Below, piece after piece: positions 295-31,468 of a stretch of DNA of 64,000 nucleotides. A model generated the notes under the pieces. The model was given only the letters and a program-made list of their open reading frames with translations, did no database searches and was not told the origin of the DNA. Numbering within the stretch: position 1 is the first letter of the stretch; each line of letters opens with the position of its first letter. A program made the position numbers and the translations under genes. The DNA is taken from NCBI GenBank assembly GCA_018907035.1, contig JACCIC010000342.1:124001-188000 (forward strand), in the 5' to 3' direction. This DNA is from Sycobia sp. Sy_11. Taxonomy: Eukaryota; Arthropoda; Insecta; Hymenoptera; Epichrysomallidae.

Positions 295-296
295 TA

Positions 297-2884: not shown

Positions 2885-3058
2885 CTGACCAATTGCTGGA
2901 AGTCTCTGCAGTAAAAGGCAAAATATTGGAGGTGGTAATGTTCTTTGAAAAAGTTGAAGCATTTGATGAGGCTGGTTACAAACCGTTATAGCATTAGCTA
3001 GGTGTTCAATACCACCTTCCCAATCTCCTTGCGAAAGCAATTCTTCGCCCATTTGTAC
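2885..3058 (-). CDS. Tom20: Tom20 mitochondrial import receptor, coding exon 3
   Basis: This is a 174-bp exon of exactly 58 codons. On the minus strand it has an AG acceptor just before 3058 and a GTAATT donor just after 2885. It reads VQMGEELLSQGDWEGGIEHL, then NAITVCNQPHQMLQ and LPPPIFCLLLQRLP. These blocks are the tetratricopeptide-like receptor domain of TOM20, including the QP..ML and LPPP.F signatures known across animals. TOM20 sits in the mitochondrial outer membrane and binds presequences of imported proteins. The reading frame is clean. The remaining ~15 residues, usually acidic at the end, need one more exon that I did not find. Confidence 0.96.
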
Positions 3059-3126
3059 CTATTGCATATGAATGTTTAACAATTATAGTATTTTATTACT
3101 ATTAATATTACGGAAGATAACATTAC
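3059..3126 (-). other. Tom20: Tom20 intron 2 (68 bp)
   Basis: A short intron with a GTAATG donor next to exon 2 and an AATAG acceptor next to exon 3. It is phase 0. Its small size is normal for insects and contrasts with the ~28-kb intron 1 of the same gene. Confidence 0.92.
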
Positions 3127-3218
3127 CTCTTGAAGAAAAAATTTCTGAGTTACTTCGTGATTTTTAAGATTAGGAATATTTGAGGCCACTTTCAATGCTT
3201 CTTTTTTAGCCTTTCGAC
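3127..3218 (-). CDS. Tom20: Tom20 mitochondrial import receptor, coding exon 2
   Basis: A 92-bp exon. Its first two bases complete the arginine codon split by intron 1 (C from exon 1 plus GT). It then reads RKAKKEALKVASNIPNLKNH and EVTQKFFLQE and joins in phase 0 to exon 3. This matches the linker and first helix of TOM20, where LRERRKK is followed by a region ending QKFFLEE. The acceptor is TTAAG and the donor is GTAATG. There are no stops or frameshifts. Confidence 0.95.
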
Positions 3219-3229
3219 CTTAACATTAA

Positions 3230-4825
3230 AAACAATTGTTAAATGTATAGATATATCTGATGACAATTCATGGAAATTAATTAAGGAAATGTGAGGCATT
3301 TTTATCAATTTTCTAAGGTCTAAGGAAGTAATGTACTAACATTATATCATTTATAATACATTTTTGTATAGGAACAATTCTTATAGAATTATTGCTTTTA
3401 TTTCATAAAAAAGTATAAGTTCAAATAAAAAACAATTATTTTTCTAATTGGAATCTTATAACAACTTTCTATAAGTCACTTGGTTCAATATTTTCTCTCC
3501 GAATACAGAATATTCACAAATTGCGAAATACTTGGCAGGAATCGTATGTTAGCATCTGACTATTATTTTTCGAATGAACTATGGGTAAGAAACAAATTCG
3601 ACGTATTTTATTCAAAATGTTTGTATAATATAGTCACTTAGAAAATCCAGTAAAATAAATAACTTCAAAATTTAAAAAAAAAAGTTAATTTTACAAGTGA
3701 ATATCCTTAAAGCTACTCGAGGATTCAAATTTACTGCCTATTTACATAAAATTACATAATTCAATATGCAATTCTTATTTATAGATATAGAATTTGTATA
3801 TCCGAAAATTATATAATATTTTTCCTATTGACATTAATTCCAAATATCCATTGTTATTCAACAAATCTAATTTGTAGATTATGGTAAGTTATTTATTGTG
3901 TCAACATTTTGAAGGATTTATATCTACTTTTGATGTGTGAACAGTGCATGAGCTGGAACAGAAAAACTATTATACTAAAATATTATACTGAAACAGGTGA
4001 GTCTGGTTTTCAAACAAAAAACGAATACCATTCAAATCATATTATGTTGTATGTTGTTACAAATATCATAAACAGTAAGTTTCGGCTACCAGCGAAGACT
4101 CAAAGTTGCGAAGGAAGAATCAGAGTATCCAAATCAACGTAAATATGTGCGAGAGTTTTATTTGACGTGGGCCGAAAGACTCATGGCGCATCGCGGCATG
4201 GTGCGTGCACATAATCGTAAGGTAAGGAGCCTATCATCTTTCGGCTTGAAATATAGCCACTACGCGTGCAAACGATAGGTGAGAAAATTGTCGTACAGGA
4301 TTTAAACGCGAGGCGAACTATAAGATTACGATTGCGATCGTCAATTCTTCAATATAATTGTAAAATCCATTCAGAACTTATCACACTCCTGTGATAAAAT
4401 TGAAAGATGAATTTTCTAATATTATCAAACTACATTTATTTTTCCAAATCAATTTTATCTCCTTAAAAGTAATCGTGATGCAAAAATGAAGGATAGAAAC
4501 TCTAAGATAATATAGCTTTTAACAGTTAGTCCAGAAGTTAACAAAAGAGATTCAGATGCACCACATCACGATAATCGAAGACAATGGTTAACTTGATGTT
4601 TGAACAATTTTCGCGTGGTTTTTTCGGTTTTCACGTTTTAACCTTTAGTTCGATATTCTGTGGATTGATCGTTTGCTTATATAATCAATTAAGATTGCAA
4701 GTGTACATCCAAGTTTCATGTCCCGTAATGATGCATTTCAATGCGTCAAATCATTTTATCTTAGATATTAACGCAAATATTTTTTCCGAAAAAATTAAGT
4801 GTTTTGGCACTAATCGGGATTTAAA
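3230..4825. other. no gene seen; AT-rich intronic DNA
   Basis: No reading frame with a known domain. Around 4160-4260 base composition rises locally and an 8-bp inverted repeat (CCGAAAGA / TCTTTCGG) is present, without a structure I recognise. Confidence 0.5.
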
Positions 4826-5130
4826 TTAATAATTATTTTTATCAGTCTTAAAATCTTTATACAATAATATATTATACTAATATAATTAGTCAGACTGTCT
4901 CTGTTTATAATCATCCTAGAAGAATCTGAAATAGAAATTACTACCAAAAATAAAATTAAACTATATTACAATTTAAAAGTAATAAAAATAATAAAATAAT
5001 AAAAATAAACTCTATTCTCTGTTAGAAAAGAACAACTTGACTACCCTACCACCTTAAATTTAAATTTACCTGAGGGTCCCACATTTCGAATCGCTACGGT
5101 TTATCTTCAAGAACTAAACTCCCAAATGGG
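4826..5130 (-). repeat. PLE-associated 3' repeat, copy P1
   Basis: This shares the ordered blocks of the repeat at 51490-51880: the Tyr-rich AT tract, a partial GTCAGACTGTC palindrome near 4889, AATCTGAAATAGAAA, and CACCTTAAATTTA. It then has a decayed form of the hammerhead-like motif (5083-5110). It reads in the minus direction and ends against a mariner remnant. Confidence 0.7.
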
Positions 5131-5475
5131 GACTTGATTCCTTTCAGATAAAAAATGGCGGTCATAATGGTTTGAGCTGATCTAAATGAAATCCCCACAG
5201 AATCACCTTGATCTCTAATTCTCAGTCGACGATCTTGGGGCACAACTTCTTTGACCTGCTTTACGTGACGATCATAAGTTGATGTTTTTGGTCGATTTGA
5301 AACCACATTCTTTTTAAACATTCGCAGCCGCTTTTGAACTCTTTGTACCAGTTATAAACATTCTTCGAAGACAAAGTCTAGTCCTCAAAGACATTTTACA
5401 GCATCCTCAACGTTTCGGTAGTCAAAATACTATTCCTAAAACAGGATTTGGTGCATTTTCTTTGTTCAACAAATC
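5131..5475 (-). pseudogene. mariner transposase N-terminal remnant
   Basis: On the minus strand the pieces VEQRKCTKSCF, VYNWYKEFKSG, then NRPKTSTYDRHVKQVKEVV and RRLRIRDQGDSVGISF match, in order, the two helix-turn-helix units of irritans-like mariner transposases. The frame is broken at least twice between 5340 and 5400. The catalytic domain is absent because the sequence passes straight into the P1 repeat at about 5130. Confidence 0.78.
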
Positions 5476-7705
5476 CAGAGTAAAAATCGCCATATTCACT
5501 TTTAGCACTTCTCAAAATGAAGCATCTATCTAATAGATATTTTGACGTGAAATTGGACATATATGCCACTGACAGTACTGTCAACTTTCAACAAAAAAAT
5601 TTTAAGAATGAAAAGAGAGGTATATATTTCTTGAACAAAAATTTAACATTGAAACTTTTCGAAAGGTAAATATTGGAGATCGAAACTTTTCGAAACTACG
5701 TAATATTGTGATCGAACTAATAGGATCATAATAGAAATAAATGTTGCTGGTGAAGTACTATACAACAAAGCCACGTGTCTTTTAGTACAAGAACTGTTAA
5801 CAGAAAATTTGTACGCAGTTTAATTAAAACCGAAAATTTTGTCACGATGTTAGGTGCAAGCGACTGAGAAAGAAGTGTGCGCCAGACCGATTCGGGCATA
5901 GCCAACCATTTAATAAATACATCATTTTTCGTAAATGTCAACATAGATCACTATAATATTCAGGGATTGATTGAACCTGTATATCTCAACTCCTTTATGC
6001 AACTAGATGTAGCAAAAACTTAAATAAATGAATGCAACTAAGATAATTTTATGACAATAGCAGCTATTTTACCAAAGAAAATTATGGTTTCAACAATGTA
6101 AGGAATCAAGAGCGCTTGCAAAATAACGAATTTTTTACGCATATCACGAATTTCATGCAAAATTTAATTTTTTTTTTGTAATATTCTATTAGGAATAAAA
6201 ATATTAATGAAACTGCACATAGTACTTTTATTAAAAGGCTTCAATATTTAAGCGAAACTCTCAATAAAATATCCAATATTGTAAACATCTTAAAACTATC
6301 TTAACACTATTTTCAAGTAAACCAACAAGAAAAATTAGGAAAATTAGGAAACGCTTTAAAAATGCAATGCCTCTAGTCAAGAGCCAATTCAATATAATAC
6401 ATTCTACGCCGTTAATTTTTATTTAGTTAGCCATCCATTTTCTCGCATTCGAAATGGTAACAGCTAAAAATAAACACTATCACACCAGAATTTGATCAAC
6501 CAATTTTTTACGCTAAGTCAATATAAATATATTATAGATACCGTTGAATCTCACTTACGCCTAAAATCGATTTTCACGAAGAAAATAAATACATGCAGTT
6601 CAAAACTAGTGTTTTTGCTATCACAACAATTTACGAAACTGCTTCTGATACACCGGTCTTTGCATCTCACCCTTTCTCAATTGTTATAGATAACTTGAGC
6701 AGCTAGATACACTTTTGGTACCACTGATTTTCAGAACGGTATGAGATATAGTTTAGAAAATAGGGCTTTTAAAAGACTACATTGGTCACATGCTGCAAAA
6801 AATTTTCAGTTATTTATATTTGCTTCGCCAACTTTGGCGTATTAATTAAGGGTAACTATAAATAATAATTATGTTCTAAGTTTAAAAATGAATAGATTGG
6901 TTATCGATATTAAAATCATAAACAATCTTAATTTTTTTTAAATCTTCAAAATTCCTATTTTTATACATCTTTAATGTAAACGGAGAAATTTAATTTCTGT
7001 AAAACTAACTAAAGAGAATAATTTATTTTAAACTATTGCGTTATTTTTATTTTTACTTTCATGGTTCATAAATAAGAATACTAACAATTTTTTCTCTTAA
7101 ATAGTAAAAGAAAATATTAGTTTTAAAAACACCATAAGGAAAAAACTATTTGAACATATTTGTTGTACAGTGTAGTTAATCACAACTCATGGCTAGTCAA
7201 TATATAAGTATGTTCTAACTGCCATAACTTTGCATAGAGTATACAACAAATTGGCGTGTACGAAACATATACAAACAGTGCTTGTCATGTATTCATTCAT
7301 TCTTCTATTCCTGTTCACGACACACGAAACTAGTAGTTTTCCAGTGGATCACGAAGATACCTTAGTAGAGAATCGTGCTGTCGATAATCACAAAGGAAGT
7401 ATAGGTTTGTCTGATTTGGTTTGGGCACAGTTTTTCACGTAATATAAAAAAGAACCGTTCAAGCAAAAATTGTTTGAAGTGTTGTGAACACTCCATTCTA
7501 TCATAAATAGTAATAAAAGATTGGCACAAAACCGATGACGCAAAACACAGTAGATATTCAAATGAGTCGATATTACCAGAAAATACCAAACATTCCACAA
7601 AATAGTTTTTAATGATCGTATAGTGGATATCGTAAAGATATTAAAAATATGTATTGGGTTTATATAAAATGGTTTATACTTGACAAAGCTCTGTTCAAAT
7701 TAAAT
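5476..7705. other. no gene seen; AT-rich intronic DNA
   Basis: Only short frames without recognisable domains. I see no repeat family shared with other parts of the window. Confidence 0.5.
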
Positions 7706-8125
7706 GTCACTGTTGATCAAAAACAAAATGTTTGTCATTCTCAGAGTTTTTGACCATGTTCAAATCTACCAAACCGCAGTTTCTGAGTCTATGTCTGACA
7801 ACGGATGAAACATGGATCCATTATTTAAATTGAAAATCAAAACGATCGTCCTCTGAGTCGATCGTAACTAGTGAACCTCGTCCATAAACAGTGATTATGA
7901 CATAGGGTTCTTGTAGCATTTAGTACATAAATTGCAAAAAACAATCATGTGTAGCAAGGAAAAAAGTTTTGTTTTATAAAGGCAATGCACAGCGTAACAC
8001 ATTAAAAAAAACAATTGCAAAACTATTAAAATTAGATTAAAAATTGATCGTGTATTTCCCGTATTGTTCAGACTTGGCTGCCACCTATACTAGCTGTTTG
8101 AGAAAAAATATCACTCTTTATGATT
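7706..8125 (+). pseudogene. mariner transposase remnant (irritans type)
   Basis: Broken fragments in family order: VTVDQKQN, then LCLTTDETWIHY (first catalytic D within TDETW), TSEPRPKT, KKVLFYKGNAQRNT (where HQDNAP is expected, so the second catalytic D has become G) and KTIAKLLKLD with YFPYCSDLAATYTSCL. Multiple stops and frameshifts. It is an old copy much more decayed than those at 22 and 29 kb. Confidence 0.8.
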
Positions 8126-9286
8126 TATATTAATAGTACATTGAAATACTTATTAGCGTTCTAGGTTAGATATGATTCTAGATTATAAATCCTAATTTCG
8201 GTAGTATGCTTATTATAAACGATTGTAAAATAAGTTTCTAATTTATAAAAATTAATCTGTTTTTCTCTGAAGGTAGTTCTTCGTTTGCTTTTATTAAAAA
8301 TGTTTATGTATGCAGATGTTGTTATTTACTATAAGAATCAAACCGAAAAAATGAATAATAAAAATTTTTTTTTCGTTGGTTATCAAAGATGGAGATTTAA
8401 GTTTTATCGTAAATGGAAAAAATAAATTAGAAAGATAAACTAATGAGAAATATATAAGAAACAAACAATAAAAATGTATGTGCATAAAAATCATATAAGT
8501 AATGACGAGAATACAAAAAATATTTCGAAACAGAAAAATGTTAAAGGTATGATTAGTAAGGATAATACAAAGTAGGTTAGACTTATAAAATAAGTAATAG
8601 GAAAGAAATGTGCAAAATTCTAAGGAAGAAATTATTAGTTATATTGATATTAGAAAATAAAGATAGAAATAATATCTTTTGAAAATAAAGAAAGATTTTA
8701 AATTTGTAAATAATAAAGTAAACATTAATAAATATTTTTAAAAAATTATTTCAGATTTAGTGACTAAAATAAACTTTTTCCCTCTTCGGTTCAAAAAATA
8801 CAATGATCTTCTACTAGTAAAGGCATGTAAAAACAAATTAAATTGACTCAAAATGTGTTTTACATATTTTTTTTACAAATACCGTATGTACAATGATCTT
8901 AAAAGATAGCTGGGCAATCAAAGGACCCAACAGATTTTGTTTGGATTGGACAATTTTTCATACGTCAAAAAGATTTTAACATTGTTCAATTTTATGAAAT
9001 GATCTAAGAAAGTTCGAGAAAAATTAATGAGCAATCAAACAAAATAATACAGTCGCCAAGCTATTGCAGGTACTTTTTTCTGTGTAGAAGGATCAGTTCT
9101 TTGTCTTTCTGCCAAGAGCCATTAAAGTATAATAGAATCTTAAGTGGAAATATTTTTACAACTTTTACCTACATTCTTTCAGCAAAGCTGATTAAATACG
9201 TTATGAGGATACTGATAGAGCTCCCTTTCAAAGTCTGCCACTATCCATATGGACGGTAACTCTTCTTTTAGCACCCCCTTTAGGAG
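8126..9286. other. no gene seen; AT-rich intronic DNA
   Basis: No recognisable coding segment. The right end may contain highly decayed N-terminal sequence of the next mariner, but I cannot support that residue by residue. Confidence 0.45.
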
Positions 9287-10035
9287 TTAGTTACAGAGCA
9301 GTTGGCAAACGTTTAGATGTAGTGGAAAAGATTCATAAAAAAGGAAAATGAATGTAACACGACTTGACCGGAAGTGCAATCGATATAATCGAATCGATAC
9401 AACATCGCACTGTATTTATTTGCCAGGCAAAGAAAGAAGAGTTTTCTGTGGCGTATTGTAACTGGTGATGAAAAATGGGTCTACTATGACAATTCTAAGC
9501 GCAAAATGTCATGGGTGGATCCAGGCCAACCGTCCTCATCGATACGAAAACGGAACATCTACGGCCAAAAGGTATTGCTGTACATTTGGTGCAACCAACA
9601 GGGTGTTCTATACAACGAGCTACTAAAACTGAATGAAATCGTCACTGTTGATATATACAAACGCCAACTGAATGATTTGCAACAGAAATTGATCGAACAT
9701 AGATCGACAATCGCGAGTAATAGGCGCAAAGGCATTCTCTTGCACGAGAACGCTCGACTATATGTTGCGACAGCCGTCAAAGACACCCTCTTGGAGATCG
9801 AATGGGAAGTGTTGCCGCACCCAGCGTGCTCGCCAGACATAGTGCCTTTTGATTATGTCCTATTTAGATCGATGTATCACGACGTTGGTACACACTTCCG
9901 ACATGTTCAAGAAGTGCGAGAATTTGTGGATGATTAGATCGCCTGAGAACCGCTATCGGTCTTTCGCCACGGCATCGCCAATTGCGGGAAAGATGGGAAA
10001 AAGTAGTAGAAAATGATGGAAAATATTTTGTTTAA
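9287..10035 (+). pseudogene. mariner transposase, decayed, with catalytic Asp to Glu change
   Basis: From 9287 the frame reads AVGKRLDVVEKIHKKGK, then from about 9435 the catalytic domain WRIVTGDEKWVYYDN (first D intact) and SWVDPGQPSSSIRKRNIYGQ. The second motif is LLHENARLY where HDNARPH is normal, so the catalytic D is E. The third motif, VPFDYVLF, keeps its D. A stop follows VREFVDD at about 9935. After a further shift the family ending RWEKVVENDGKYF is readable up to the TAA at 10033-10035. It belongs to a different lineage from the 22/29-kb copies. Confidence 0.9.
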
Positions 10036-10434
10036 GCTATCGTGTATCTATTTTCAATCATGAATCTCCTTTTTTCGTTAAAAAAGGTGGAAAACTAAGT
10101 TCGCTTCCGAATATATACCACACGATTTCGAGATGATCAACTTACAGTATGAGGTAGTGTCATATTACAGAAGTATCATATTTCCTGTATAGATATTTTT
10201 TCAGAATCTAGGACATGATGTATATTTTATTTTAAAACGAACTGTTACTTCACACAGGTTCATTCAATCTCTCATAGATCTTGAATTTTCTAGAAGTTTT
10301 CGCCGTTCAGTCCGCAGAACCCTGGGCCAATTCGGAATGGAGGGGATAGGCTAAAATTTATCTAAGTTAGTTTTCAGATAGGAATCAGGCACAGACAAAA
10401 TGTGCAATAGAGGGACGTATATATGAAAATATAT

Positions 10435-10440
<6 letters not shown>

Positions 10441-10483
<43 letters not shown>
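10441..10483. repeat. (TA)n microsatellite
   Basis: An uninterrupted TA tract of about 43 bp in AT-rich intron DNA. Confidence 0.98.
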
Positions 10484-10487
<4 letters not shown>

Positions 10488-10599
10488 ATAAATAAATACA
10501 TAAAAATAAAGTTATATCTTAAATAAAATAAAAAATAAAAATAACTGAGTAAACTTAAATTGCTATAGAGATATACCAGTTATTAACCATATTCAAATT

Positions 10600-11072
10600 T
10601 TAGTGCAAAATATTATGTACCCCTTCACACGAGATATGTACAGCACTAGCAATCTCACGCACCTTCACTCTTTTATCATTCATTACCATATCATGGATTT
10701 TATCAATGATTTCTGGAGTCAGCGCAAAAGGGGTTCCGTAACGCTCAGTGTCTCTTATGCTCATATAGCCACACCGAAAATTTTAAAACCACTTATAAAC
10801 TTATCAAGCTTTTGCTTAGTCTCCTAAGGTGTTTTGCCTTTAATAGAGTAAGGTGTAATCAACACACGAAATTCTTTTTCGCCCATTTTTTTATAACCAC
10901 TCGATTTCTTTGATTCAAACGAATGTTAAACACAAAGTCATAGACTGATCTGGCCGAAACTTAATAGATGTTCTTTCAAGAGGCGATACTAATTAAAAAT
11001 AACCTTGATATGCACCACTGGTCCTATCAATCGAGTTTACATGGACTTATCAAACGACCCTCGTACATACGG
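10600..11072 (-). pseudogene. mariner transposase N-terminal remnant (irritans type) with 5' inverted repeat
   Basis: The start ATG at 10884-10886 begins MGEKEFRVLITPYSIKGKTP. After stops and shifts, LTPEIIDKIHDMVMNDKRVK and VREIASAVHIS follow; these are the paired helix-turn-helix units of irritans-like mariners. The minus-strand sequence upstream of the ATG begins near 11072 with TACGAGGGTCGTTTGATAAG, a terminal repeat typical of this group. The catalytic domain is missing to the left of 10600. Confidence 0.85.
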
Positions 11073-11099
11073 GGGGCGGGGGGCAAAAATCGGGAAATT

Positions 11100-11640
11100 C
11101 GTTATAACTTCTTTATTTATTAATATTTTTGCTCTAAATTTTTATCACCTTCAAAGCATTTTTCCTTGACAGCAACACACTTCTGAAAAGTATGCTTCCA
11201 TTGTTCAAAACATTTTTGAAATTAATTTATTAAGATATTCATCTCATGTCCTTTTTAAGCCTGAGGATCAAAAACGAATGACAGGGAGCCAGATCCTATG
11301 AGTGGGAGAGGGATGAAGAAATAGTGCCATGCCGCTTTTAGTCAAAAACTGCTTTACGATGAGAACCGTGTGGATCAGTCCGTTCTCATGATGGAAGAAC
11401 CATTTGCCTGCGCACCAAAGATCTGTCCTATTACTTTAGATATATCACCTCAATCTTTTCAAAACCTTCATGTAAATCTTTTGCTTAACAGTTTCATCCT
11501 GAGGAACGAACTTCACGTAGACAATACCACTGCAATCGAAGAAACAAATGATTATTGTCTTGATGTTTGACTTCATTTGGCGGATTTTTTTTTGGAACGA
11601 AGAGAGCAAGGTGAATGCGACTGACTTCAATGCTGTTTTC
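11100..11640 (-). pseudogene. mariner transposase C-terminal half, remnant
   Basis: From 11630 leftwards on the minus strand: KSNIKTIIICFFDCSGIVYV, KFVPQDETVKQKIY, VLKRLR; then after breaks DLAPCHSFLILRLKKDMR (normally DLAPCDFFLF, so the third catalytic D is H here), and finally the tail FQKCVAVKEKCFEGDKN. The N-terminal half is absent; the broken edge meets the PLE-type repeat at about 11650. Confidence 0.82.
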
Positions 11641-11649
11641 TTTTAAAAA

Positions 11650-12024
11650 CTACCTCAGTTTAATTCTTGAGGATGAACCGTAGCGTTTTTTAAACGTTGG
11701 ATACCAAAGGTGAATCTAAATTTAAGGTGATAGGAGCAGTCAGGTTGTCCTTTGCTAATATAGATTATTGTTTTTATTATTTTTATTTTATTTATTATTT
11801 TATTTCTATTTTATTATGAATTTTATTTTTATTTTAATTTTTAATTTTTAATACAACTTATTGTAGTAATAAGTTTTATTTCAGATTCTTCGGGGGTGAA
11901 TATAAACAGAAACAGTCTGATTGTCATTATTTTAGCTAATATATTATATTATAAAGTAAGACCGATAAAAATATTTATTAATTTAATTCAGAACAGTCGA
12001 TATAAGTACAATTTTTAATTCTAA
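11650..12024 (+). repeat. PLE-associated 3' repeat, copy P2
   Basis: Plus-strand copy. It starts with a damaged hammerhead-like motif (CTTGAGGATGAACCG at about 11666), then AAATTTAAGGTGATAGGAGC, a long AT tract, TTTTATTTCAGATTCTTC, a decayed palindrome near 11925, and ACCGATAAAAATATTTATTA. It ends with the block containing CAGAACAGTCGATATAAG near 12010. The order mirrors the minus-strand copy at 51490-51880. Confidence 0.75.
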
Positions 12025-12622: not shown

Positions 12623-12628
<6 letters not shown>

Positions 12629-12659: not shown

Positions 12660-12662
<3 letters not shown>

Positions 12663-20846: not shown

Positions 20847-20909
<63 letters not shown>

Positions 20910-21857: not shown

Positions 21858-23142
21858 TCAGGTATGTGAATAAGTCTTTCCCGTTTTTTTCAAATTTTGA
21901 GCCTTTATTGTGAAAAAATGGTTACAAATGAATTATTGAAAGTATTGGCCATCGCTAGCTACAACTTTTTCCCATCTTTCTGGCAACATACGAATCCCGT
22001 TGCGAAAAAATTCGACCGGTTTGGCCTCTATCCAGTCATCCACCCATTGTTTGGCTTCCTCGTAGGAATGGAAGTGCTGGTCAGCCAGGCCATGCGTCAT
22101 CGATCTGAAGAGATGGTAATCAGACGGAGCAACGTCTGGACTATACGGCGGGTGGGGTAGGACTTCTCATTTGAGCGTTTCTAAGTATGTTTTCACCGGC
22201 GGTGCAACATGTGGGCGAGCATTGTCATGTTGCAAAATAACTTTGTCGTGCCTGTCGGAGTATTGTGGCCGTTTTTCTCGCAGTGCGCGGCTCAAACGCA
22301 TCAATTGTCGTCGATAGACCTCGCCTGTGATCCTTTCATTCGGTTTCAGAAGATCATAGTAAACCACACCTAGCTGGTCCCACCATATACAGAGCATGAG
22401 CTTGGCGCCATGAATATTTGGCTTGGCCGTCGATGATGATGCATGGCCGGGTAGTCCCCATGATTTTCTTCGCTTCGGATTATCGTAACGTATCCACTTT
22501 TCATCGCCAGCCACGATACGATGCAGAAAACCCTTTCTTTTATGTCGCTGAAGCAGCTGTTCGCAAGTGAAAAAACGCCGTTCGACGTCTCTCAGCTTCA
22601 GTTCGTACGGCACCCAATTTCCTTGCTTTTGGATCATTCCCATGGCTTTCAAACGCTTGGAAATGGTTGTTCGGTCAACTCCCAATGCTTCAGCAAGTTC
22701 TTCTTGCGTTTGACAAGAATCTTCATCAAGCAAAGTCGCCAATTCTCGATCTTCAAAGATTTGCGGCCGCTTGGAACGCTCCTTGTCTTCCACGTCGAAA
22801 TCACCGCTTTTGAAGCGTCGAAACCATCCGCGAACACTTGAATCATCGACACAACCTTCTCCATAAGCCTCCTGAAGCAATCGATGCGTCTCGGCAGCAG
22901 ATTTCTTCAAATTGAACCAATAAAGTGAAACTTCCCGCAAATGACGTCGACTCGGCTCAAATTTCGACATTTTCACGATATCAAAAATTTATGATGCGAA
23001 AAAATTTTAACTAATGTGTTAGTATGGAATTGTTGACATATGAATAAGCTTTGATTATGACATATGTAACCATTGAATACTCGCACAGTATTGGTGGCAC
23101 CATCTCTTACAAAAAACGGGAAAGACTTATTCATACTCCTAA
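21858..23142 (-). mobile_element. mariner element (mauritiana-type), nearly intact, copy 2
   Basis: 1285 bp, flanked by TA on both sides (21856-21857 and 23143-23144). The terminal repeats are TCAGGTATGTGAATAAGTCT on the left and, reverse-complemented, TTAGGAGTATGAATAAGTCT on the right, each continuing TTCCCG. It is nested inside the segment with long inverted termini and is very similar to the copy at 28364-29647. Confidence 0.97.
21933..22976 (-). pseudogene. mariner transposase, one nonsense codon
   Basis: The frame is 348 codons from the ATG at 22976 to the TAA at 21933-21935, the normal mariner length, broken only by TGA at codon 270 (22167-22169), where W of the conserved WEVLPHPPYSPD block is expected. 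The N-terminal half has paired helix-turn-helix DNA-binding units (KKSAAETHRLLQEAYGE and QTQEELAEALGVDRTTISK). The catalytic residues are D in GDEKW (about residue 158), D251 in HDNARPH and D286 in PSDYHLF, exactly 34 residues apart. The stop removes D286, so a terminated product cannot be active. It resembles ant Mboumar transposases, from memory of that family. Confidence 0.95.
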
Positions 23143-23144
23143 TA

Positions 23145-24984
23145 TAATTTTTTATTCAATTTTTTCCAAAAACTTTTTTGTTCTCAATTTCTATAATTGG
23201 TGCGTGTGATCATATAATCACCACAATGCAGTATGCCAAATTAATATTATATTGCTAATTAATGAATTAATTAGAATGATGAAACACAATGCGAATTAAT
23301 GTATAATACATACTTTATTTACACAAGCTTACAATTTACTTAGATACGCATGCGGTAGTGTCCGAAGAGAATCTAAATCTTTTTTTTTTTGTTCGAACTA
23401 AGTTGTAGAGAGATATATAAGAAAATAAAACTATTGAAATTGTTCTATAATGATTGGTTGGAAAATTGAAGGGAGGGAGGTAGAGGTGCAGTAGGCGGGG
23501 TTAAATCTTAAATTCTAAAACAACTGCGCATCGAGTGACCATTAACAAGGGTCACAAAAGGGGGGGGGGGCAATAAACGATTTAAACTGTCCTTTCTAAG
23601 CGCAAATATGCACTCCAGATGTTTCGGGACGGCTTAAGAATGGCAATAATAATTCAGATGTTTTATATTGAATTTTGAAATAGTTCGTGCCGCTTTTCGA
23701 AATCCTATGATTTATATTTGCTTAAAAGATGCTTTTTAAAGAAATACATGAGAAACGTAAAAAAAATATAAATTTACCAAAGGCACGTATTCTATTAACG
23801 CGCTTCGGATGAATTTATCTTATTACGACGTAACAATAATATTTGTAATCAAGTGAATCAAAATCTATACGTAATATATCTATCTAGAATTTTTATCAGT
23901 TTTTTATATAAATTTGACAATTTTTTCGAAACAGCTCTGTATTCAATTATATATATTAAATAATATACATTTAAGATTATAAACAATTTATTATATGTTC
24001 TTTAAAATTTTAAACTATAATTGTCAGAATAAAATAAATTATTGAAATTATTCTATAATATACATAAGTAATTCATATAATGCGTTTTTAACAATTTTAC
24101 CAGTAGATCATTTTATCATAAGTGAGGCTATGTCCACAATCAGAGTAATATTATAAATAAACCAACAGAATAATTCCATTATGAGTTTATACAGAAAATG
24201 ACTCTATTTCTTAGACTAATCTTTGTGTTAAATCGGAATTATACAAATTGTTTAAAATATCAATAAGTAACAATACAGAGTAGATTATAATAAATATAAT
24301 TGAAAAGTATGCTGTTTGTATGTGAAGGAAACTAGGAATAATGTATGTGATTTATGAATTATATTTAGTATCAGAGACATGGATTGATCAACTAATCAAA
24401 CTACGTTAACATTAAAATCTACGTCATACTCGTATTTTTTAAATATATGTTTAAGTTCGTGTTATTACTTATAATTATTTAAAATACTTATATATTTTTT
24501 ATTGAAAATACATATTGTAGAAAATACAAAATTTCAAATTCTATCCTATTGTAAAACGTTGTAGAATGTAAATCTTATATCATGTAGTTATAATTTAGAT
24601 AACGTATAACTTTTTAACTTTTATACTTTTATTTTATTTTATCTAGCATTTAATAGCCAGAATTTCATTTTCTATTTTTGATTTATATTATTATTTATAT
24701 GTTTAATATTGGAGACAATTAATGGATTTTCTCTTTTTGTTCCTACGCGTTATTTACTACAATATAATATAAGCATTAAATATTAAAATTAAATTTCTTA
24801 AACTAATTAAGGAATATCCATTTTAGCACAAAATCATAAGACTCAATTTGAAATTTCTACAATGGAAGATAGGAAAGTCTTGATATTCTGCAGAATCAAA
24901 AATTCATCTACATTATGAAGCTGGCATGGGAGTTTGGGTCTGAATTGCTTTCTGATGCGCGTGCGCATATTAGATATATTTTGT
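23145..24984. other. no gene seen; interior of the 4.2-kb segment
   Basis: AT-rich DNA with a G11-type run near 23560 and no recognisable coding sequence. Confidence 0.5.
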
Positions 24985-25242
24985 CATAGCCTCTGTAATG
25001 ATATAAACGAAAACAGCAACGTGGCATTGGACAAAAGCGTATAACTATATCTATATATATTTATTGCCTACGTCACAGCTTGCAACGTAGCAAATGCGTA
25101 CATTAATTTATGCTGACGTAGCTGTGACGTCGCGTTGGCGCGTTAGTGTAACAGTTGAGCCGGTTGAGGGTGTACGTTTCTGACGCTCGAAAATCGTCGA
25201 GCCTTTCGTATATGGCATCGGCAATCACTACTTATTATCTCT
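24985..25242 (-). repeat. right long inverted repeat of the 4.2-kb segment
   Basis: The reverse complement matches 21004-21262 along almost its full length with scattered differences. It includes the GGCTCGACGATTTTCGAGCG block, the ACGCGACGTCACAGCTACG block and the stretch ending CGTTTATATCATTAC. Confidence 0.85.
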
Positions 25243-25580
25243 GGTAACCCAAAATTGGATATGAACATTCGTTTGAGATGGCCCGGTACTAATACTTTAA
25301 GGGGACTACTTTGAGTTGATGTCCGTGATTCAAGACGCCACCTAGTGGCCGATGGTGGAACTGATGTTAAAACCATAAACTTAATTTATTGATGAAAGTA
25401 AAATGATTTTCAATAAAACATAGCCTATGTCCTTCCCAAGATAATATAGAATCTATATGTCAAATTTCAGAACAATCGGTTCAGTAGTTTTTAGTCGGTT
25501 ATCGTGTACAAACAAAAACACGCTTTGTCTTTATAAATTAGTATGAAGTATGATTTGATATGATATGATATGATATTATA

Positions 25581-25622
<42 letters not shown>
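25243..25622 (+). repeat. RTE-like dispersed repeat, copy 1, right half (3' end)
   Basis: Continues the copy begun at 20645: TTGGATATGAACATTCGTTT, CACCTAGTGGCC, TTCAATAAAACATAGC, then AATCGGTTCAGTAGTTTTTA and ACACGCTTTGTCTTTATAAA. The sentence-like AATCGGTTCAGTAG ending and the trailing TGATATGATATG units that run into (AT)n are typical of RTE-type LINE 3' ends, which finish in short tandem repeats rather than poly(A). Confidence 0.55.
25583..25622. repeat. (AT)n microsatellite
   Basis: Begins directly after the TGATATGATATG tail of the RTE-like repeat. Confidence 0.97.
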
Positions 25623-25624
<2 letters not shown>

Positions 25625-25744
25625 TGACTCATTTTAATCGGTGCAGCTGGACCTAAACCAGATAGGGCAAAGTGGTTCTAACAAAAGTTGTAGAAGGCAA
25701 AGGGGGCAAGACAATAGGGCTAAAGTTTTTGTGTTGAGGGGGTA

Positions 25745-26090
25745 GAATACGTTGTTCAGGTATCCAGGGACGACTTCTACTGGGAGATTGAGTGTTGGGA
25801 TAATAGAATTCGAATTTCTTCATAGTAGTCATCCGTCATACATGGGCATCGTCTTCTACCGTCCCAATACGAATCTTCCCATAGAAGTCGATCTTCTCAT
25901 ACCTGGACGTTGTTTTCTATCAACCAAATTCAATATTCCTCGTAGAAATCGCCCAGAGACAACTGGATATCGTATTCTATCATCCGAACACAGAACTTCC
26001 AATAGAAATCGTCCTAAGGCAACGGGATATCATGTTCAACCGCCCGTACACGCCAATACAATATTTCTCAGTAGAAACCGTATTTAAAAT
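25745..26090 (+). repeat. 60-bp minisatellite, array 1
   Basis: About 5.5 tandem units of exactly 60 bp, each with a core like TAGAAATCGTCC followed by a variable middle and ATCCGAACAC. It ends with CAGTAGAAACCGTATTTAAA and then (TA)n, the same ending as array 2. The repeat unit is a multiple of three, so a 111-codon frame stays open on the plus strand with a 20-residue periodicity. Confidence 0.9.
25752..26087 (+). CDS. open frame made of 20-residue repeats (array 1)
   Basis: 111 codons of imperfect 20-residue units such as RRNRPETTGYRILSSEHRTS, rich in Arg, Pro, Ser. It has the same unit as the frame at 26519-26833. It is probably a by-product of a frame-preserving minisatellite, but a repetitive protein gene is possible. 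No promoter, signal peptide or known family is seen. Confidence 0.25.
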   Translation: MFRYPGTTSTGRLSVGIIEFEFLHSSHPSYMGIVFYRPNTNLPIEVDLLIPGRCFLSTKFNIPRRNRPETTGYRILSSEHRTSNRNRPKATGYHVQPPVHANTIFLSRNRI

Positions 26091-26331
26091 ATGTATATAT
26101 ATATATACTAGCATCCCCCGTCTCGGCTTCACCCGAGATAATAATTTAACAGATTTCATAAACAATTCAATAATATCTAAGTCAAAAGTACTTATATATA
26201 TATATATATATATATATAAATCTATATTTCTATAAATAATTGACCGTAATTTACCTATCGTGGCTTCTGTATAAAAAGCTGCTTCAATGCAGTGTCCACT
26301 TCAAAAAGTTGATATTTTGCCGACCATTTTA

Positions 26332-26333
<2 letters not shown>

Positions 26334-26380
<47 letters not shown>
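26334..26380. repeat. (TA)n microsatellite
   Basis: A TA tract of about 47 bp between the two minisatellite arrays. Shorter tracts lie at about 26090-26108 and 26192-26218. Confidence 0.97.
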
Positions 26381-26383
<3 letters not shown>

Positions 26384-26459
26384 TATGGCTTGGATGAAGA
26401 AAATTGTACTTTCGAGTTCAAGCGGTAGAACAAGATGTTCAGTGTCTCGAGATGACGTT

Positions 26460-27420
26460 TTCGGAGAGTATCATGTTCGGACTATAGGAAATTTCTCCGG
26501 ACGACTCTTACTGGGAGTGTGCGTGTTCGAATGATAGAATACGAATCTCTTCATAGAAGTCGTACTAGCATACCTGGATTTTGTTTCCCACCAGCTATAC
26601 ACGAAATTCCCCATAAAAGTCGTTCAAAAACACCTGGAAATCGCATTCGATCATCCGAATACGAAACTCCCCGTAGAAGTTGTCCCGACATACCTGAAGA
26701 TCGTTTCCTATCAACTAAACACGATACTCAACGTAGAAATCGTCCCGTTATATCTGGTCATCGTCTTCAACCGTCCGAACACGAAATTCCCCGTAGAAGT
26801 CGTTACAAAACACCTGGAAATCGCATTCTATAATCCGAACATGAAACTCCGCCTAGAAGTTGTCCCGACATACCTAAACATCGTTTCCTACCAACTAAAC
26901 AAGATACTCTCCGTAGAAATCGTCCCGCCATATCTGGATATCGTCTTTTACCGTCCGAATACGAAATTCCCCGTATAAGTCGTTCCAAAACACCTGGAAA
27001 TCGCATTCTATGATCCGAACATGAAATTGCCCCCACATACTTAAACATCGTTTTCTACCAACTAAACACGATAGTCCCAGTAGAAGTCGGCCCAAGAAAG
27101 CTAGCATCGCTTCCTAACGACTAAACACAATACTCCCTGTAGAAGTTGTTCGGAAAGACCTAGATATCGTATTTTACTATCTCAACACGAATCTTTCCTT
27201 AGAAGTTGATTTCCTCATACCTGGATCTCGTTTTCTATCAACTACATACAATATTCCCCGTAGAAATCGCTAAGAGACTCCTGGATATCGCATTCTATCA
27301 TCCAAACACATAACTGCGTATAAAAATCTTTATGAGGCAACGGAATACCGTAATCGACCGCCCGTATACGCCAATACAATATTACTCAGTAGAAACCGTA
27401 TTTAAAATATGTTTAAAATA
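26460..27420 (+). repeat. 60-bp minisatellite, array 2, with 180-bp higher-order repeat
   Basis: About 16 units of 60 bp. In the middle (about 26620-27010) every third unit is the most alike: GTCGTTNCAAAACACCTGGA-type, GTTGTCCCGACATACCT-type and ATCGTCCCGNNATATCTGG-type units alternate, giving a 180-bp higher-order period. The array ends with the same CAGTAGAAACCGTATTTAAA as array 1 and a microsatellite. Divergence is higher toward both ends. Confidence 0.93.
26519..26833 (+). CDS. open frame made of 20-residue repeats (array 2)
   Basis: 104 codons. Units include RSRSKTPGNRIRSSEYETPR, then SCPDIPEDRFLSTKHDTQR, then NRPVISGHRLQPSEHEIPR. The following units would stay in frame but carry a TAA and later a TGA at the same repeat position. 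The minus strand is also open for 81 codons at 26803-27048. It is highly basic and has no known domain. Coding status is doubtful. Confidence 0.25.
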   Translation: MRVRMIEYESLHRSRTSIPGFCFPPAIHEIPHKSRSKTPGNRIRSSEYETPRRSCPDIPEDRFLSTKHDTQRRNRPVISGHRLQPSEHEIPRRSRYKTPGNRIL

Positions 27421-27452
27421 TGTATATATAACATGTACAATATAATATACAT

Positions 27453-27456
<4 letters not shown>

Positions 27457-27487
<31 letters not shown>
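27457..27487. repeat. (TA)n microsatellite
   Basis: Follows the end of minisatellite array 2 after a short AT-rich spacer. Confidence 0.97.
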
Positions 27488-27489
<2 letters not shown>

Positions 27490-27654
27490 TTTTTATATTT
27501 CCGTTTTTTCAATTAAATACCGTAAATATTTTCGTAGTAATGTTAACTGAAATTCAAGCAAAATATTGGTATGCGCATAGCATATTTTTTTAATAGCCGA
27601 TCAATATTGCTTTTTTATGCAGAAGTGGCGATATATTTTAGTTATATATCCATA

Positions 27655-27858
27655 GTTTCGAGGTTGTTGGTAAAGAACCCTATTTTAGCATCATTTCTTT
27701 TGTTCAAACTAAAAAAAACATAGTCTCTTATTACAATTCTGAAATTAATAGAATCCATAAAAATAAAAATATAACTTGTCGTCACAAACTATATTCAGTA
27801 TGATTTGGCATACAGAACCATTTTATAAGAGAAGGAGAAAGAAAGACAATGATATAGT

Positions 27859-27922
<64 letters not shown>

Positions 27923-28275
27923 TTTTCCCACGTAAGAAAAAATAAAATGTACAAAAATCAAAAGATATCCATAATGTGTGAGAGTAATGTCAGATTAACC
28001 TGTAGAATAAAAAAGGTAATACCGACTAACGTTACACCTCCTTAAGGATACGAATTCCAAAGTTGGATATGAACATTCGTTTGAGCTGGCCTGGTATTAA
28101 TACTTTAAGCGGACTACTTTGAATTGATGTTCGTGATTCAAGACGACACCTAGTGGCCGCTGGTGAAACTGATTGTTAAAACCAATCAGTTCAGTAGTTT
28201 TTTCGGTTATCGTGTACAGACAAAAACACGCTTTGTCTTTATAAATTAGTATATAAGTATATATATATGTATATA
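27655..28275 (+). repeat. RTE-like dispersed repeat, copy 2
   Basis: The most complete copy: CGAGGTTGTTGGTAAA at 27658, the GA tract at 27862-27914, GTCAGATTAACCTG, CACCTAGTGGCCGCTGGTGA, then ACACGCTTTGTCTTTATAAA and a TATA-rich tail. Compared with copy 1 it lacks the block around TTCAATAAAACATAGC because of an internal deletion near 28185. It is directly followed by copy 3. Confidence 0.75.
27862..27914. repeat. (GA)n microsatellite
   Basis: Lies inside RTE-like repeat copy 2. A long all-RE reading frame across it is an artefact. Confidence 0.97.
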
Positions 28276-28363
28276 TAATCATTTCTTTTGTTCAAACTAA
28301 AAAAAAACATAGTCTATTGTCACATACCTGAAATTCAACATAGCGTGAAAAAACAAAAATATA

Positions 28364-29647
28364 TCAGGTATGTGAATAAGTCTTTCCCGTTTTTTTCAAA
28401 TTTTGAGCCTTTATTGTGAAAAAATGGTTACAAATGAATTATTGAAAGTATTGGCCATCGCTAGCTACAACTTTTCCCATCTTTCTGGCAACATACGAAT
28501 CCCGTTGCGAAAAAATTCGACCGGTTTGGCCTCTATCCAGTCATCCACCCATTTTTTGGGTTCCTCGTAGGAATGGAAGTGCTGGTCAGCCAGGCCATGC
28601 GTCATCGATCTGAAGAGATGGTAATCAGACGGAGCAACGTCTGGACTATACGGCGGGTGGGGTAGGACTTCTCATTTGAGCGTTTCTAAGTATGTTTTCA
28701 CCGGCGGTGCAACATGTGGGCGAGCATTGTCATGTTGCAAAATAACTTTGTTGAGCCTGTCGGAGTATTGTGGCCATTTTTCTCGCAGTGCGCGGCTCAA
28801 ACGCATCAATTGTCGTCGATAGACCTCGCCTGTGATCCTTTCATTCGGTTTCAGAAGCTCATAGTAAACCACACCTAGCTGGTCCCACCATATACAGAGC
28901 ATGAGCTTGGCGCCATGAATATTTGGCTTCGCCGTCGATGATGATGCATGGCCGGGTAGTCCCCATGATTTTTTTCGCTTCGGATTATCGTAACGTATCC
29001 ACTTTTCATCGCCAGTCACGATACGATCCAGAAAACCCTTTCTTTTATGTCGCTGAAGCAGCTGTTCGCAAGTGAAAAAACGCCGTTGGACGTCTCTCAG
29101 CTTCAGTTCGTACGGCACCCAATTTCCTTGCTTTTGGATCATTCCCATGGCTTTCGAACGCTTGGAAATGGTTGTTCGGTCAACTCCCAATGCTTCAGCA
29201 AGTTCTTCTTGCGTTTGACAAGAATCTTCATCAAGCAAAGTCGCCAATTCTCGATCTTCAAAGATTTGCGGCCGCCCGAAACGCTCCTTGTCTTCCACGT
29301 CGAAATCACCGCTTTTGAAGCGTCGAAACCATCCGCGAACACTTGAATCATCGACACAACCTTCTCCATAAGCCTCCTGAAGCAATCGATGCGTCTCGGC
29401 AGCAGATTTCTTCAAATTGAACCAATAAAGTGAAATTTCCCGCAAATGACGTCGACTCGGCTCAAATTTCGACGTTTTCACGATATCAAAAATTTATGAT
29501 GCGAAAAAATTTTAACTAATGTGTTAGTATGGAATTGTTGACATATGAATAAGCTTTGATTATGACATATGTAACCATTGAATACTCACACAGTATTGGT
29601 GGCGCCATCTCTTACAAAAAACGTGAAAAACTTATTCACACTCCTAA
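28364..29647 (-). mobile_element. mariner element (mauritiana-type), nearly intact, copy 3
   Basis: 1284 bp, flanked by TA at 28362-28363 and 29648-29649. The terminal repeats are like those of copy 2. It is one base shorter than copy 2 because of a deletion in the coding region. It is inserted inside an RTE-like repeat and is therefore younger than it. Confidence 0.97.
28439..29481 (-). pseudogene. mariner transposase, nonsense codon plus frameshift
   Basis: Start ATG at 29481. It is 269 codons long up to a TGA at 28672-28674, the same W-to-stop change at codon 270 as in copy 2. Past this, one T is missing in the plus-strand run near 28472-28475 compared with copy 2, which shifts the frame shortly before the normal stop (TAA at 28439-28441). 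The first two catalytic aspartates (TGDEKW, HDNARPH) are present and the third lies behind the stop. Differences from copy 2 are few, so both are recent. Confidence 0.95.
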
Positions 29648-30180
29648 TAATTTGATATAATTTGTCGTCACAATTTATGTATAGTATGATATGGCATACA
29701 CAACCATTTTATAAGAGAAGAAGGAGAAAGAGAGATATTTTTCCACGTAAGAGAAAATAATATTTACAAAAATCAAAAGATACTCATAAGGTGTGAGAGT
29801 AGTGTCAGATTAACCTAAAGAACAAAAAATATAATACCGACTAACGTAACACCATCTTTAGGATACGAATTCCAAAGTTGAATATAGCTATTCAACTAAG
29901 CTTGACTGGTATAAATACTTCAAGCAGGCTACTTCGTGTTCATATTCACGTTTCAAGATGTCACCTACTGACCGCTGGTGAAACTGACTACTAAGGCCAT
30001 TAACTTAATTTATCGATGAAAGTAAAATAATTTTCAATAAAAAACATAGCGATGTCCTTCCTAACATACTATAGAATCTATATCTGAAATTTAAGAACAA
30101 TTGGTTCAGTAGTTTTATATAAATTTTCATGGTTTGAAAATTTGAACATAAAAAAACAAACATAGAAATAAATAGTATAT

Positions 30181-30645
30181 AGCAGTCTTGCCATGGGAGC
30201 AGCAATTCTGAAACTAGCCTTCATGGCACTAGCACTCCACTTGATTATTAAATATATTATATTTAACTGATAATCTCAAGTACTACTTTTGATATTATAT
30301 CCTACAGGACTGACTTGTTGTTCAAACTATAATATATAATATTGTTTTTCAAAATATTTAAAGAAACGTATTAAAAAATAAATAAACAAATATAGAAAAT
30401 TTTTATATACTAATAATAAAAAATAAAAGAAACCAACATAAATGCATTTAAGAAATATAAAATAAAAATATAATATATATATTTATTAAATATTCTATAC
30501 ATTACATGGTATTTTTATTGAAATTTACACATTTAATAAGTTCAATTTATATCACCAGAAAATTCAGTAGACTGTGTTTGTAAAATGCTTCAGAAAAATT
30601 TTGTATAAACAGAAACATTTATTCCTTGAACCAACAACTGTTTTA

Positions 30646-30693
<48 letters not shown>

Positions 30694-30969
30694 TCTAGTT
30701 ATTTAGAGAAAGATTTTAATCAGTATTTTACAAACTATAAAAAGAATAAGACAAAACAAAAAAATTTATCACTTTTAATTGAAACAATAAATAGGATTGG
30801 AATTTCAAGAAATAATTTCAATAGTCTACTTATATTCATAAATGCAATTCTGAATATTTATTTCCATTTACAAAATGGAAAAAATATGAATATGTGAAAA
30901 CTAATAAGGACAATTTTCTCTCCACTAAAAGTTAATCTGAAAATTTCATTAGAATTATTTGCATTAAAA
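30181..30969. other. no gene seen; AT-rich intronic DNA
   Basis: Includes a (TA)n tract at 30648-30691. The 107-codon frame around it is driven by the microsatellite and has no domain. Confidence 0.55.
30648..30691. repeat. (TA)n microsatellite
   Basis: A TA tract of about 44 bp in Tom20 intron 1. Confidence 0.97.
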
Positions 30970-31146
30970 ATATATAAACCTTCAGTAATATTTTTCAATT
31001 GTTATACAAAATACTATAATAAAGATTATCAATATTTACATTTATTGTTAATTGATCTGCAATTTCCAAAATTCATTAATTAAAAATTTGTTTTTAATGT
31101 ACGAGTCAATTAATATAAATATGATAGCTAATAAATTCTTTTTCGA
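30970..31146 (-). repeat. 177-bp segment repeated at 36388-36562
   Basis: Near-identical to the stretch next to the 3' end of the R1/Jockey-like LINE, from ATAAACCTTCAGTAATATT to GATAGCTAATAAATTCTTTT. At 36.5 kb this segment begins directly after the LINE stop codon, so it is best read as that LINE's 3' UTR. This copy would then be a severely 5'-truncated insertion in Tom20 intron 1. Confidence 0.65.
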
Positions 31147-31344
31147 GTTTAGAAATTTTTGACTGAATTGTATTTCAAATACATTAAAATTAAAACTGGA
31201 ATTTTACTTCTTAGAAAACTGATTCTATTTTACTAAATGAACGTTTTAATCAAAAGAAACAAAATAATTTTATTGAAAATTATGAAATTTTCGTTAATTG
31301 TAATAACTCAAACTATTTACTTTAAGTATAATCGTATTTCTTAC

Positions 31345-31468
31345 GTTCACGTAATTTCTTTTTAAAATCAGGATCTTTTCTTCGTTTTTGATCAAAATAT
31401 AAGCAGTAACCAACAAATATTCCAGCAACTCCAACGGCAATACTAACTGCAGTTTTAGACATCATCAT
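31345..31468 (-). CDS. Tom20: Tom20 mitochondrial import receptor, coding exon 1
   Basis: Encodes the N-terminus: MMMSKTAVSIAVGVAGIF, then VGYCLYFDQKRRKDPDFKKK and LRE, plus the first base of the next arginine codon. Residues ~7-25 form the single membrane anchor that places TOM20 in the mitochondrial outer membrane, and the YFDxKRRxDPxFKxxLRERR block is diagnostic. The most upstream of three consecutive ATGs (31466-31468) is taken as start; either of the next two would also work. The donor is GTAAGA. A good acceptor (ACGCAG at 31478-31483) lies just upstream of the ATG, suggesting a 5' UTR intron and a further noncoding exon to the right. Confidence 0.96.

What the first reader, a model, noticed from the sequence alone, without database searches (positions are those of the whole stretch)
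2885..31468. Tom20 gene split by a ~28-kb intron made almost only of transposons
Three exons of the essential import receptor TOM20 join perfectly in phase, yet exon 1 is ~28.1 kb from exon 2 while intron 2 is 68 bp. I count seven mariner copies, one Copia, PLE and RTE-like repeats, a segment with long inverted termini and a minisatellite inside. Such expansion of one intron in a short housekeeping gene is unusual and may affect splicing or expression.
Basis: partly seen in the sequence, partly recalled or inferred. Interest (0 to 1): 0.75.

Follow-up and report, generated by a model that had tools for sequence, protein, structure and literature searches.

The report
Wasp Tom20 gene with transposon-swollen introns
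A short, essential mitochondrial-import gene of a wasp-like insect is stretched to about 57 kb by two introns of about 28 kb each that carry many transposon remnants, as has been described for genes lying in transposon-rich parts of fly and wasp genomes.

Summary
Exons 1-3 of a Tom20 (MAS20) gene lie at 31468-31345, 3218-3127 and 3058-2885 on the minus strand, with GT-AG introns of 28,126 and 68 bp. Exon 3 ends at another donor. The missing exon 4 lies 25 kb outside the window (C271:98679-98635) and adds KFNSQSLMAEEDVE*, the usual hymenopteran tail; intron 3 is 28,205 bp. So two introns are swollen, not one: 435 nt of CDS over 56,834 bp. A MAS20 search of the 621-Mb genome finds this locus only.

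Demonstrable repeats cover at least 39% of intron 1 and 49% of intron 3, so "almost only transposons" is not shown. By like measures 20 sampled stretches average 9%. The flanks are transposon-rich; no other host gene was recognised among the ORFs scanned. Of 14 proteasome loci, 8 have several matched pieces, all gaps at most 340 bp.

Best reading: an active single-copy gene in a transposon-dense, probably heterochromatin-like compartment, spliced normally. Drosophila virilis heterochromatic genes and Anastatus Ago1 are close precedents. Splicing, expression and chromatin were not tested. A new member of a known kind.

The parts
31345..31468 (-). Tom20 exon 1 (coding part, 124 nt, ends in phase 1; donor C|GTAAGA)
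   Evidence: genome MAS20 match C271:155328-155429
3219..31344 (-). Tom20 intron 1, 28,126 bp, GT-AG; at least 39% demonstrable repeats
3127..3218 (-). Tom20 exon 2 (92 nt)
3059..3126 (-). Tom20 intron 2, 68 bp
2885..3058 (-). Tom20 exon 3 (174 nt), followed by donor GTAATT; not the last exon
   Evidence: genome MAS20 match C271:126906-127076
1..2884 (-). In-window part of Tom20 intron 3; the intron is 28,205 bp and runs on to C271:98680. Exon 4 (C271:98679-98635, KFNSQSLMAEEDVE*) lies 25.3 kb left of the window start
1..292 (+). End of a mariner copy (whole copy at window -989 to 292), intron 3
1847..2563 (+). mariner-like transposase remnant (Transposase_1), intron 3
9389..9934 (+). mariner-like transposase remnant (Transposase_1), intron 1
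10588..10800 (-). mariner-like remnant by protein comparison, intron 1
11307..11561 (-). mariner-like remnant by protein comparison, intron 1
18921..19556 (+). Copia-type gag_pre-integrase / Pol_BBD fragment, intron 1
20967..25279 (.). segment with long inverted termini (20967-21252 and 24995-25279); a mariner lies inside it
21860..23140 (-). mariner copy, 1281 bp as delimited, terminal inverted repeats 25/28, TA two bases beyond each arm, intron 1
26599..27034 (+). minisatellite, 60/180-bp period; related sequence in genome sample L013
28366..29645 (-). mariner copy, 1280 bp as delimited, terminal inverted repeats 24/28, TA two bases beyond each arm, intron 1
31677..31690 (-). CTCF-like motif (13 of 14 positions; consensus recalled), 209 nt 5' of the ATG; binding not tested

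Best explanation
This is the only Tom20 locus found in the genome of a hymenopteran, probably a parasitoid wasp. The gene is intact in sequence: four exons, 144 aa, ATG to stop, GT-AG introns, and an AATAAA about 30 nt after the stop. It sits in a transposon-dense, gene-poor stretch. Transposons, most visibly mariner-type elements with some retroelement and minisatellite sequence, have accumulated in the first and last introns to about 28 kb each; the 68-bp middle intron has escaped. Shown: exon structure, lengths, uniqueness at family-search level, element identity, no repeat over any exon. Inferred: normal splicing of the 57-kb pre-mRNA, ordinary Tom20 function, heterochromatin-like setting, growth by successive insertion tolerated by weak selection.
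For: Exons and junctions; homology; the complete 144-aa protein aligned with the 16 best hits, 13 of them named hymenopterans, the tail included in 14 of 16; single locus. Repeat coverage at least 39% and 49%, and 0 bases of any of the four exons. By like measures 20 sampled 10-kb stretches average 8.9% (median 4.0%), 1 of 20 above 30%. Five mariner copies 97.0-98.6% identical across C271:64001-218000, four of them in the two introns, arms matching at 24-26 of 28 and TA two bases beyond each arm. Of 32 flank ORFs scanned, 15 carry a mobile-element-type domain (12 above the Pfam cut-off, 3 below) and none a host family above the cut-off; another matches Penelope-type reverse transcriptases (the type named from recall). 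Proteasome genes: 9 gaps between matched pieces in 8 multi-piece loci, all 46-340 bp. Precedent: D. virilis heterochromatic genes, where first and a few distal introns expand and middle ones do not (PMC7911463, passages).
Against: No RNA data, so the 28-kb splices are inferred from sequence. Heterochromatin was not tested. The 20 sampled stretches come from five contigs that hold proteasome genes, so they are not random, and the comparison favours this locus: one contiguous 154-kb piece is easier to cover by self-comparison than 20 scattered stretches, and the protein queries came from this locus. About half or more of each intron matches nothing I could compare. Pieces of the flanks share less with the sample (0-18%) than pieces of the introns (5-50%), and total coverage is lower in the flanks (30-32%) than in the introns, so the introns may be richer than their surroundings. 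No related genome could be compared, so when the introns grew is unknown.
Confidence: 0.8

Rival explanations
1. Genome-wide intron growth: the 621-Mb genome has long introns in general and Tom20 is an ordinary sample of it, with no special compartment.
For: The genome is large for a parasitoid wasp (180-878 Mb quoted in PMC13116730, passages). Belonocnema, with a 1.5-Gb genome, shows species-specific enlargement of introns (PMC9613689, passages).
Against: Matched pieces of proteasome genes lie 46-340 bp apart (9 gaps in 8 of 14 loci), and most sampled stretches are poor in repeats by like measures. Only one family could be surveyed, and short terminal exons may have been missed. [quoted passage not shown]
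Confidence: 0.2
2. Pseudogene or dead locus: transposon load has silenced this copy and the working Tom20 lies elsewhere or in unassembled sequence.
For: Transposon insertion can silence neighbouring genes (general knowledge); the assembly may be incomplete.
Against: Intact frame through four exons, conserved residues and tail; both MAS20 matches in the genome are this gene; no repeat or element matched any exon base.
Confidence: 0.03
3. Assembly artefact: unrelated repeat-rich sequence wrongly placed between real exons.
For: Repeat-dense regions are prone to misassembly (general knowledge); C271 is short (234 kb).
Against: No N in the window or in the 60 kb to its left; exons 1 to 4 lie in order on one strand of one contig.
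Confidence: 0.05
4. The long introns are kept for a function, such as timing of expression or an enhancer or insulator inside them.
For: Two introns of nearly equal length flank a tiny one; CTCF-like motifs (consensus recalled) at the promoter and in a repeat present in both introns.
Against: The recognisable contents look like ordinary transposon debris; the motif is a post-hoc match to a recalled consensus, with 2 matches also in the 200-kb sample; equal length may be chance.
Confidence: 0.07

Closest known systems
Ranbp16, CG8578 and neighbours in D. virilis pericentromeric heterochromatin (PMC7911463; passages)
   Same: Single-copy conserved genes on a repeat-filled scaffold; introns inflated by transposons; first and a few distal introns expand while middle introns stay short
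   Different: Drosophila; heterochromatin shown by H3K9me3 and in situ hybridisation; different transposon mix; Ranbp16 has up to 15 introns
Argonaute 1 in Anastatus wasps (PMC9613689; passages)
   Same: Parasitoid wasp; conserved gene inflated by intronic transposons; whole transcript reported as detected
   Different: Over 840 kb; that paper stresses LTR-retrotransposon bursts, whereas here mariner-type DNA transposons are the most obvious; expression shown there, not here
Drosophila Y fertility genes (PMC2386818; search listing and start of abstract only)
   Same: Very large genes with repetitive DNA and transposons
   Different: Y-linked male-fertility genes; far larger (recalled)

Membership tests
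Tom20 / MAS20 import receptor (PF02064) | MAS20 domain over the curated cut-off | tested here: met
   128.3 bits against a cut-off of 27, exons 1-3 only
Tom20 / MAS20 import receptor (PF02064) | N-terminal membrane segment followed by a basic linker and a cytosolic receptor domain, acidic C-terminal tail (definition recalled) | tested here: met
   Alignment with the 16 best hits, 13 named hymenopterans and 3 unnamed, and with PDB chain 7vc9_M; tail MAEEDVE in exon 4. Membrane segment judged from the alignment, not predicted
Tom20 / MAS20 import receptor (PF02064) | Location at the outer mitochondrial membrane and presequence binding | not testable with these tools
   none
Heterochromatic gene with transposon-expanded introns | Repeats dense in introns and flanks | tested here: met
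   Lower bounds 39% and 49% in introns, 30-32% in flanks, against a mean of 8.9% in 20 non-random sampled stretches by like measures that favour this locus; flank ORFs
Heterochromatic gene with transposon-expanded introns | First or distal introns expand, middle ones stay short | tested here: met
   28,126 / 68 / 28,205 bp
Heterochromatic gene with transposon-expanded introns | H3K9me3 / HP1 enrichment or pericentromeric place | not testable with these tools
   none
Heterochromatic gene with transposon-expanded introns | Insulator site at the promoter (PMC7368049: promoters of 126 of 135 D. melanogaster heterochromatic genes) | tested here: inconclusive
   CTCF-like motif 13/14 at 31677-31690, consensus recalled; 0 of 3000 first-order resamples of the 501-bp promoter matched, but real sequence shows 4 matches in 154 kb here and 2 in the 200-kb sample
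mariner (Mos1-like) transposon | Transposase_1 and HTH_48 domains, terminal inverted repeats, TA target duplication | tested here: met
   Terminal inverted repeats (24-26 of 28) and TA two bases beyond each arm in five of five copies examined; Transposase_1 in five of five; HTH_48 in four of five, the scanned ORF of the leftmost copy covering only its later part

The most novel reading that the evidence does not exclude
Exons 2 and 3 form an island of 334 bp between two 28-kb introns that hold near-identical mariner copies in opposite orientation (-989 to 292 on plus; 21860-23140 and 28366-29645 on minus; 97.9-98.6% identical). Pairing of these copies in the pre-mRNA could drive back-splicing into an exon 2-3 circular RNA, so that young transposons set a linear-to-circular balance for an essential import receptor, while an insulator-like promoter keeps the gene active among transposons. 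A competing inverted pair inside intron 3 (-5838 to -4572 against -989 to 292, 97.0%) would weaken this.
Probability: 0.1. Interest if true: 0.5.

Novelty: new member of a known kind. Interest (0 to 1): 0.32.

Why it matters
It is a clean case of a short essential gene with extreme, symmetric intron growth in a genome whose one surveyed housekeeping family, the proteasome subunits, looks compact. It lets one ask why the first and last introns accept transposons while the middle one does not, and how a housekeeping gene stays on inside a transposon-rich stretch. The exon-island geometry with inverted mariner copies gives a direct circular-RNA test. The kind of phenomenon is already in print.

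Tried and rejected
A second Tom20 locus or retrocopy: not found; both genome matches, of three candidates scored, are this gene.

Recursive-splice (AGGT ratchet) sites in introns 1 and 3, by a pattern written from memory: 0 found in each, against means of 0.26 and 0.22 in 200 single-base shuffles, so uninformative.

Rfam and tRNA genes in the window: none. Tom20 relatives in viral contigs: none confirmed.

Mariner excess in the introns: 16 of 20 clusters in the 154 kb lie in the two introns (binomial p 9e-5). But 7 of the 10 queries came from the introns, clusters within 400 bp are merged (one intron-3 cluster holds two copies), and one of the four flank clusters is a query's match to itself that has no Pfam family (52448-52992), so I do not build on it. 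In the 200-kb sample the same queries gave 5 clusters, 4 of them in L031.

Papers: searches (intron, transposable elements, ant genome, long introns; TOM20, first intron, transposon, insect) found no paper with all terms; this says only that those searches in that library found none. Species was not identified, and no related genome was compared for intron length. A wider survey of intron sizes (PF00118, PF01459, PF00153) and a genome-wide DNA search were asked for and not answered, because the machine was busy.

Corrected: flank ORFs scanned (32, not 31), those above the cut-off (12, not 11), the domains of the leftmost mariner copy, and where sequence related to the minisatellite lies. One search was added: a like-measure control on the sample and a check that no repeat overlaps an exon.
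Full report
Gene model. On the minus strand exon 1 (31468-31345, 124 nt), exon 2 (3218-3127, 92 nt) and exon 3 (3058-2885, 174 nt) give 130 codons without a stop, with junctions C|GTAAGA...TTAAG|GTC, GAG|GTAATG...AATAG|GTA, and a further donor CAG|GTAATT after exon 3. So exon 3 is not the last. Most of the 16 relatives fetched end in an acidic tail such as MAEEDVE. A pattern for that tail was run over the minus strand from window 2884 down to C271:64001, using the 60 kb fetched; it matched once, outside the window...gttcatgtttttcag|AAATTTAATTCTCAATCCTTAATGGCTGAAGAAGACGTTGAATGA, followed after about 30 nt by AATAAA. Exon 4 is C271:98679-98635. Intron lengths are therefore 28,126, 68 and 28,205 bp, and ATG to stop spans 56,834 bp for a 435-nt coding sequence including the stop.

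Identity and copy number. The protein matches MAS20, TOM20 chains of solved structures and hymenopteran TOM20; the named rows Nasonia, Ceratosolen, Megachile and Leptopilina are at 73-76% identity (120 of 220 hits listed). The 144-aa product aligns along its length with the 16 best hits, 13 named hymenopterans and 3 unnamed; the tail is shared by 14, and two short entries (P0003, P0012) end otherwise. In the 621-Mb, 472-contig genome the MAS20 search gives two matches, exon 3 and exon 1 of this gene; exons 2 and 4 were not listed, probably because they are short.

What fills the introns. Counting only what I could demonstrate (repeats within the 154 kb read, matches to a 200-kb genome sample, matches to mobile-element proteins, tandem arrays), 39% of intron 1, 49% of intron 3, 32% of the left flank and 30% of the right flank are covered, and none of the four exons is touched. 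These are lower bounds; a stretch of 4.2 kb in intron 1 matches nothing here. Five copies of one mariner, about 1.27-1.28 kb as delimited, with arms matching at 24-26 of 28 bases and TA two bases beyond each arm, lie at -5838 to -4572, -989 to 292, 21860-23140, 28366-29645 and 77466-78747. They are 97.0-98.6% identical in all ten pairings, which suggests fairly recent movement, not dated here. By protein comparison intron 1 has 5 and intron 3 has 11 mariner-like clusters, the flanks 4 (biases under tried and rejected). Intron 1 also has a Copia-type fragment, the minisatellite and a segment with long inverted termini with a mariner inside it. Among 33 further intron-1 ORFs, an integrase core is matched by one ORF for each of two related models, and single weak matches to three other families are probably chance. 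PLE or RTE domains were not seen in the 41 of 48 intron-1 ORFs scanned.

Setting. The flanks are transposon-rich too: Pao, integrase-bearing elements, LINE-type reverse transcriptases and endonucleases, Penelope-type and mariner sequence. Of 32 flank ORFs scanned, 15 carry a mobile-element-type domain (counting DUF1759 and DUF4780 as such from general knowledge; 12 above and 3 below the Pfam cut-off), and none a host family above the cut-off. Not all flank ORFs were scanned, and the contig ends (C271:1-64000 and 218001-234294) were not read. Of 20 sampled 10-kb stretches from five contigs, four (L013, L016, L020, L031) have 9-40% of their length matching this locus, the rest at most 3%. Stretches compared with each other are covered at 1% on average; pieces of the introns are covered by the sample at 5-50% and pieces of the flanks at 0-18% (which took 90 of the 97 kb of flank). 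By like measures the 20 stretches average 8.9% repeat coverage, median 4.0%, 1 of 20 above 30%. The sample is not random (contigs with proteasome genes) and the measures favour this locus, since the protein queries came from it and it is one contiguous piece. It still suggests an uneven genome in which this 234-kb contig belongs to a repeat-rich part.

Is it unusual? The one family surveyed, the proteasome subunits, shows 14 loci; eight have more than one matched piece, and the nine gaps are 46-340 bp. Terminal exons too short to score could hide longer introns. Against that, Tom20 stands out. But the same pattern is in print. In D. virilis, single-copy genes on an H3K9me3-rich scaffold have introns swollen by transposons, mostly the first and a few distal ones, while middle introns do not grow (PMC7911463, passages). 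In Anastatus wasps Ago1 exceeds 840 kb and its whole transcript was detected; 23 cases of extra-long genes by intron expansion are reported (PMC9613689, passages). Promoters of 126 of 135 Drosophila heterochromatic genes are enriched in insulator proteins (PMC7368049, abstract and section 8). Tom20 here has a CTCF-like motif 209 nt before its ATG: 2 matches in the window against 0.03 expected from shuffles, but 2 also in the 200-kb sample. The consensus is recalled and the match is post hoc, so this is a lead only.

Mechanism. Most likely the gene is transcribed through and spliced as usual. Transposons settle in introns where they do little harm; the 68-bp intron is a small target, and insertions there may be selected against. 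Shown: structure, uniqueness at family-search level, element identity. Inferred: expression, chromatin state, insertion history.

Novel reading. Exons 2 and 3 lie between mariner copies in opposite orientation in the two long introns. In mammals circular RNAs are associated with young transposons, and reverse-complementary repeats promote back-splicing (PMC8516420, abstract and section headings). An exon 2-3 circular RNA is a direct prediction, but a closer competing inverted pair lies inside intron 3, and I give it 0.1.

Verdict. A correct gene observation, with one exon and one giant intron missed, and an overstatement on transposon content. A new member of a known kind.

Noticed in passing
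L010:3618-4670 (+), window coordinates 77618-78670: The mariner copy in the right flank has an uninterrupted 351-aa transposase frame with both domains, whereas the longest frames of the related copies in intron 1 (22170-22988 and 28675-29493) are 273 aa.
   Followed up: partly
25335-25348 (-) and window -12953 (intron 3): The same CTCF-like 14-mer (core 12 of 12, consensus recalled) occurs in both long introns, each time in sequence related to the repeat at 27255-28184.
   Followed up: partly
26456-26978: The 60-bp minisatellite keeps open frames of 125-146 aa, as a period divisible by three allows; related sequence occurs in L013, and the sequence that follows it recurs in intron 3.
   Followed up: no
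L031 (C124:200001-210000): One sampled stretch holds 4 of the 5 mariner-like clusters of the 200-kb sample and is the only one of 20 above 30% repeat coverage, a sign of uneven transposon density.
   Followed up: no
51517-51865, 33332-33564, 11707-12027, 17506-17624: A dispersed repeat recurs in intron 1 and the right flank at about 75-93% identity or complementarity.
   Followed up: no
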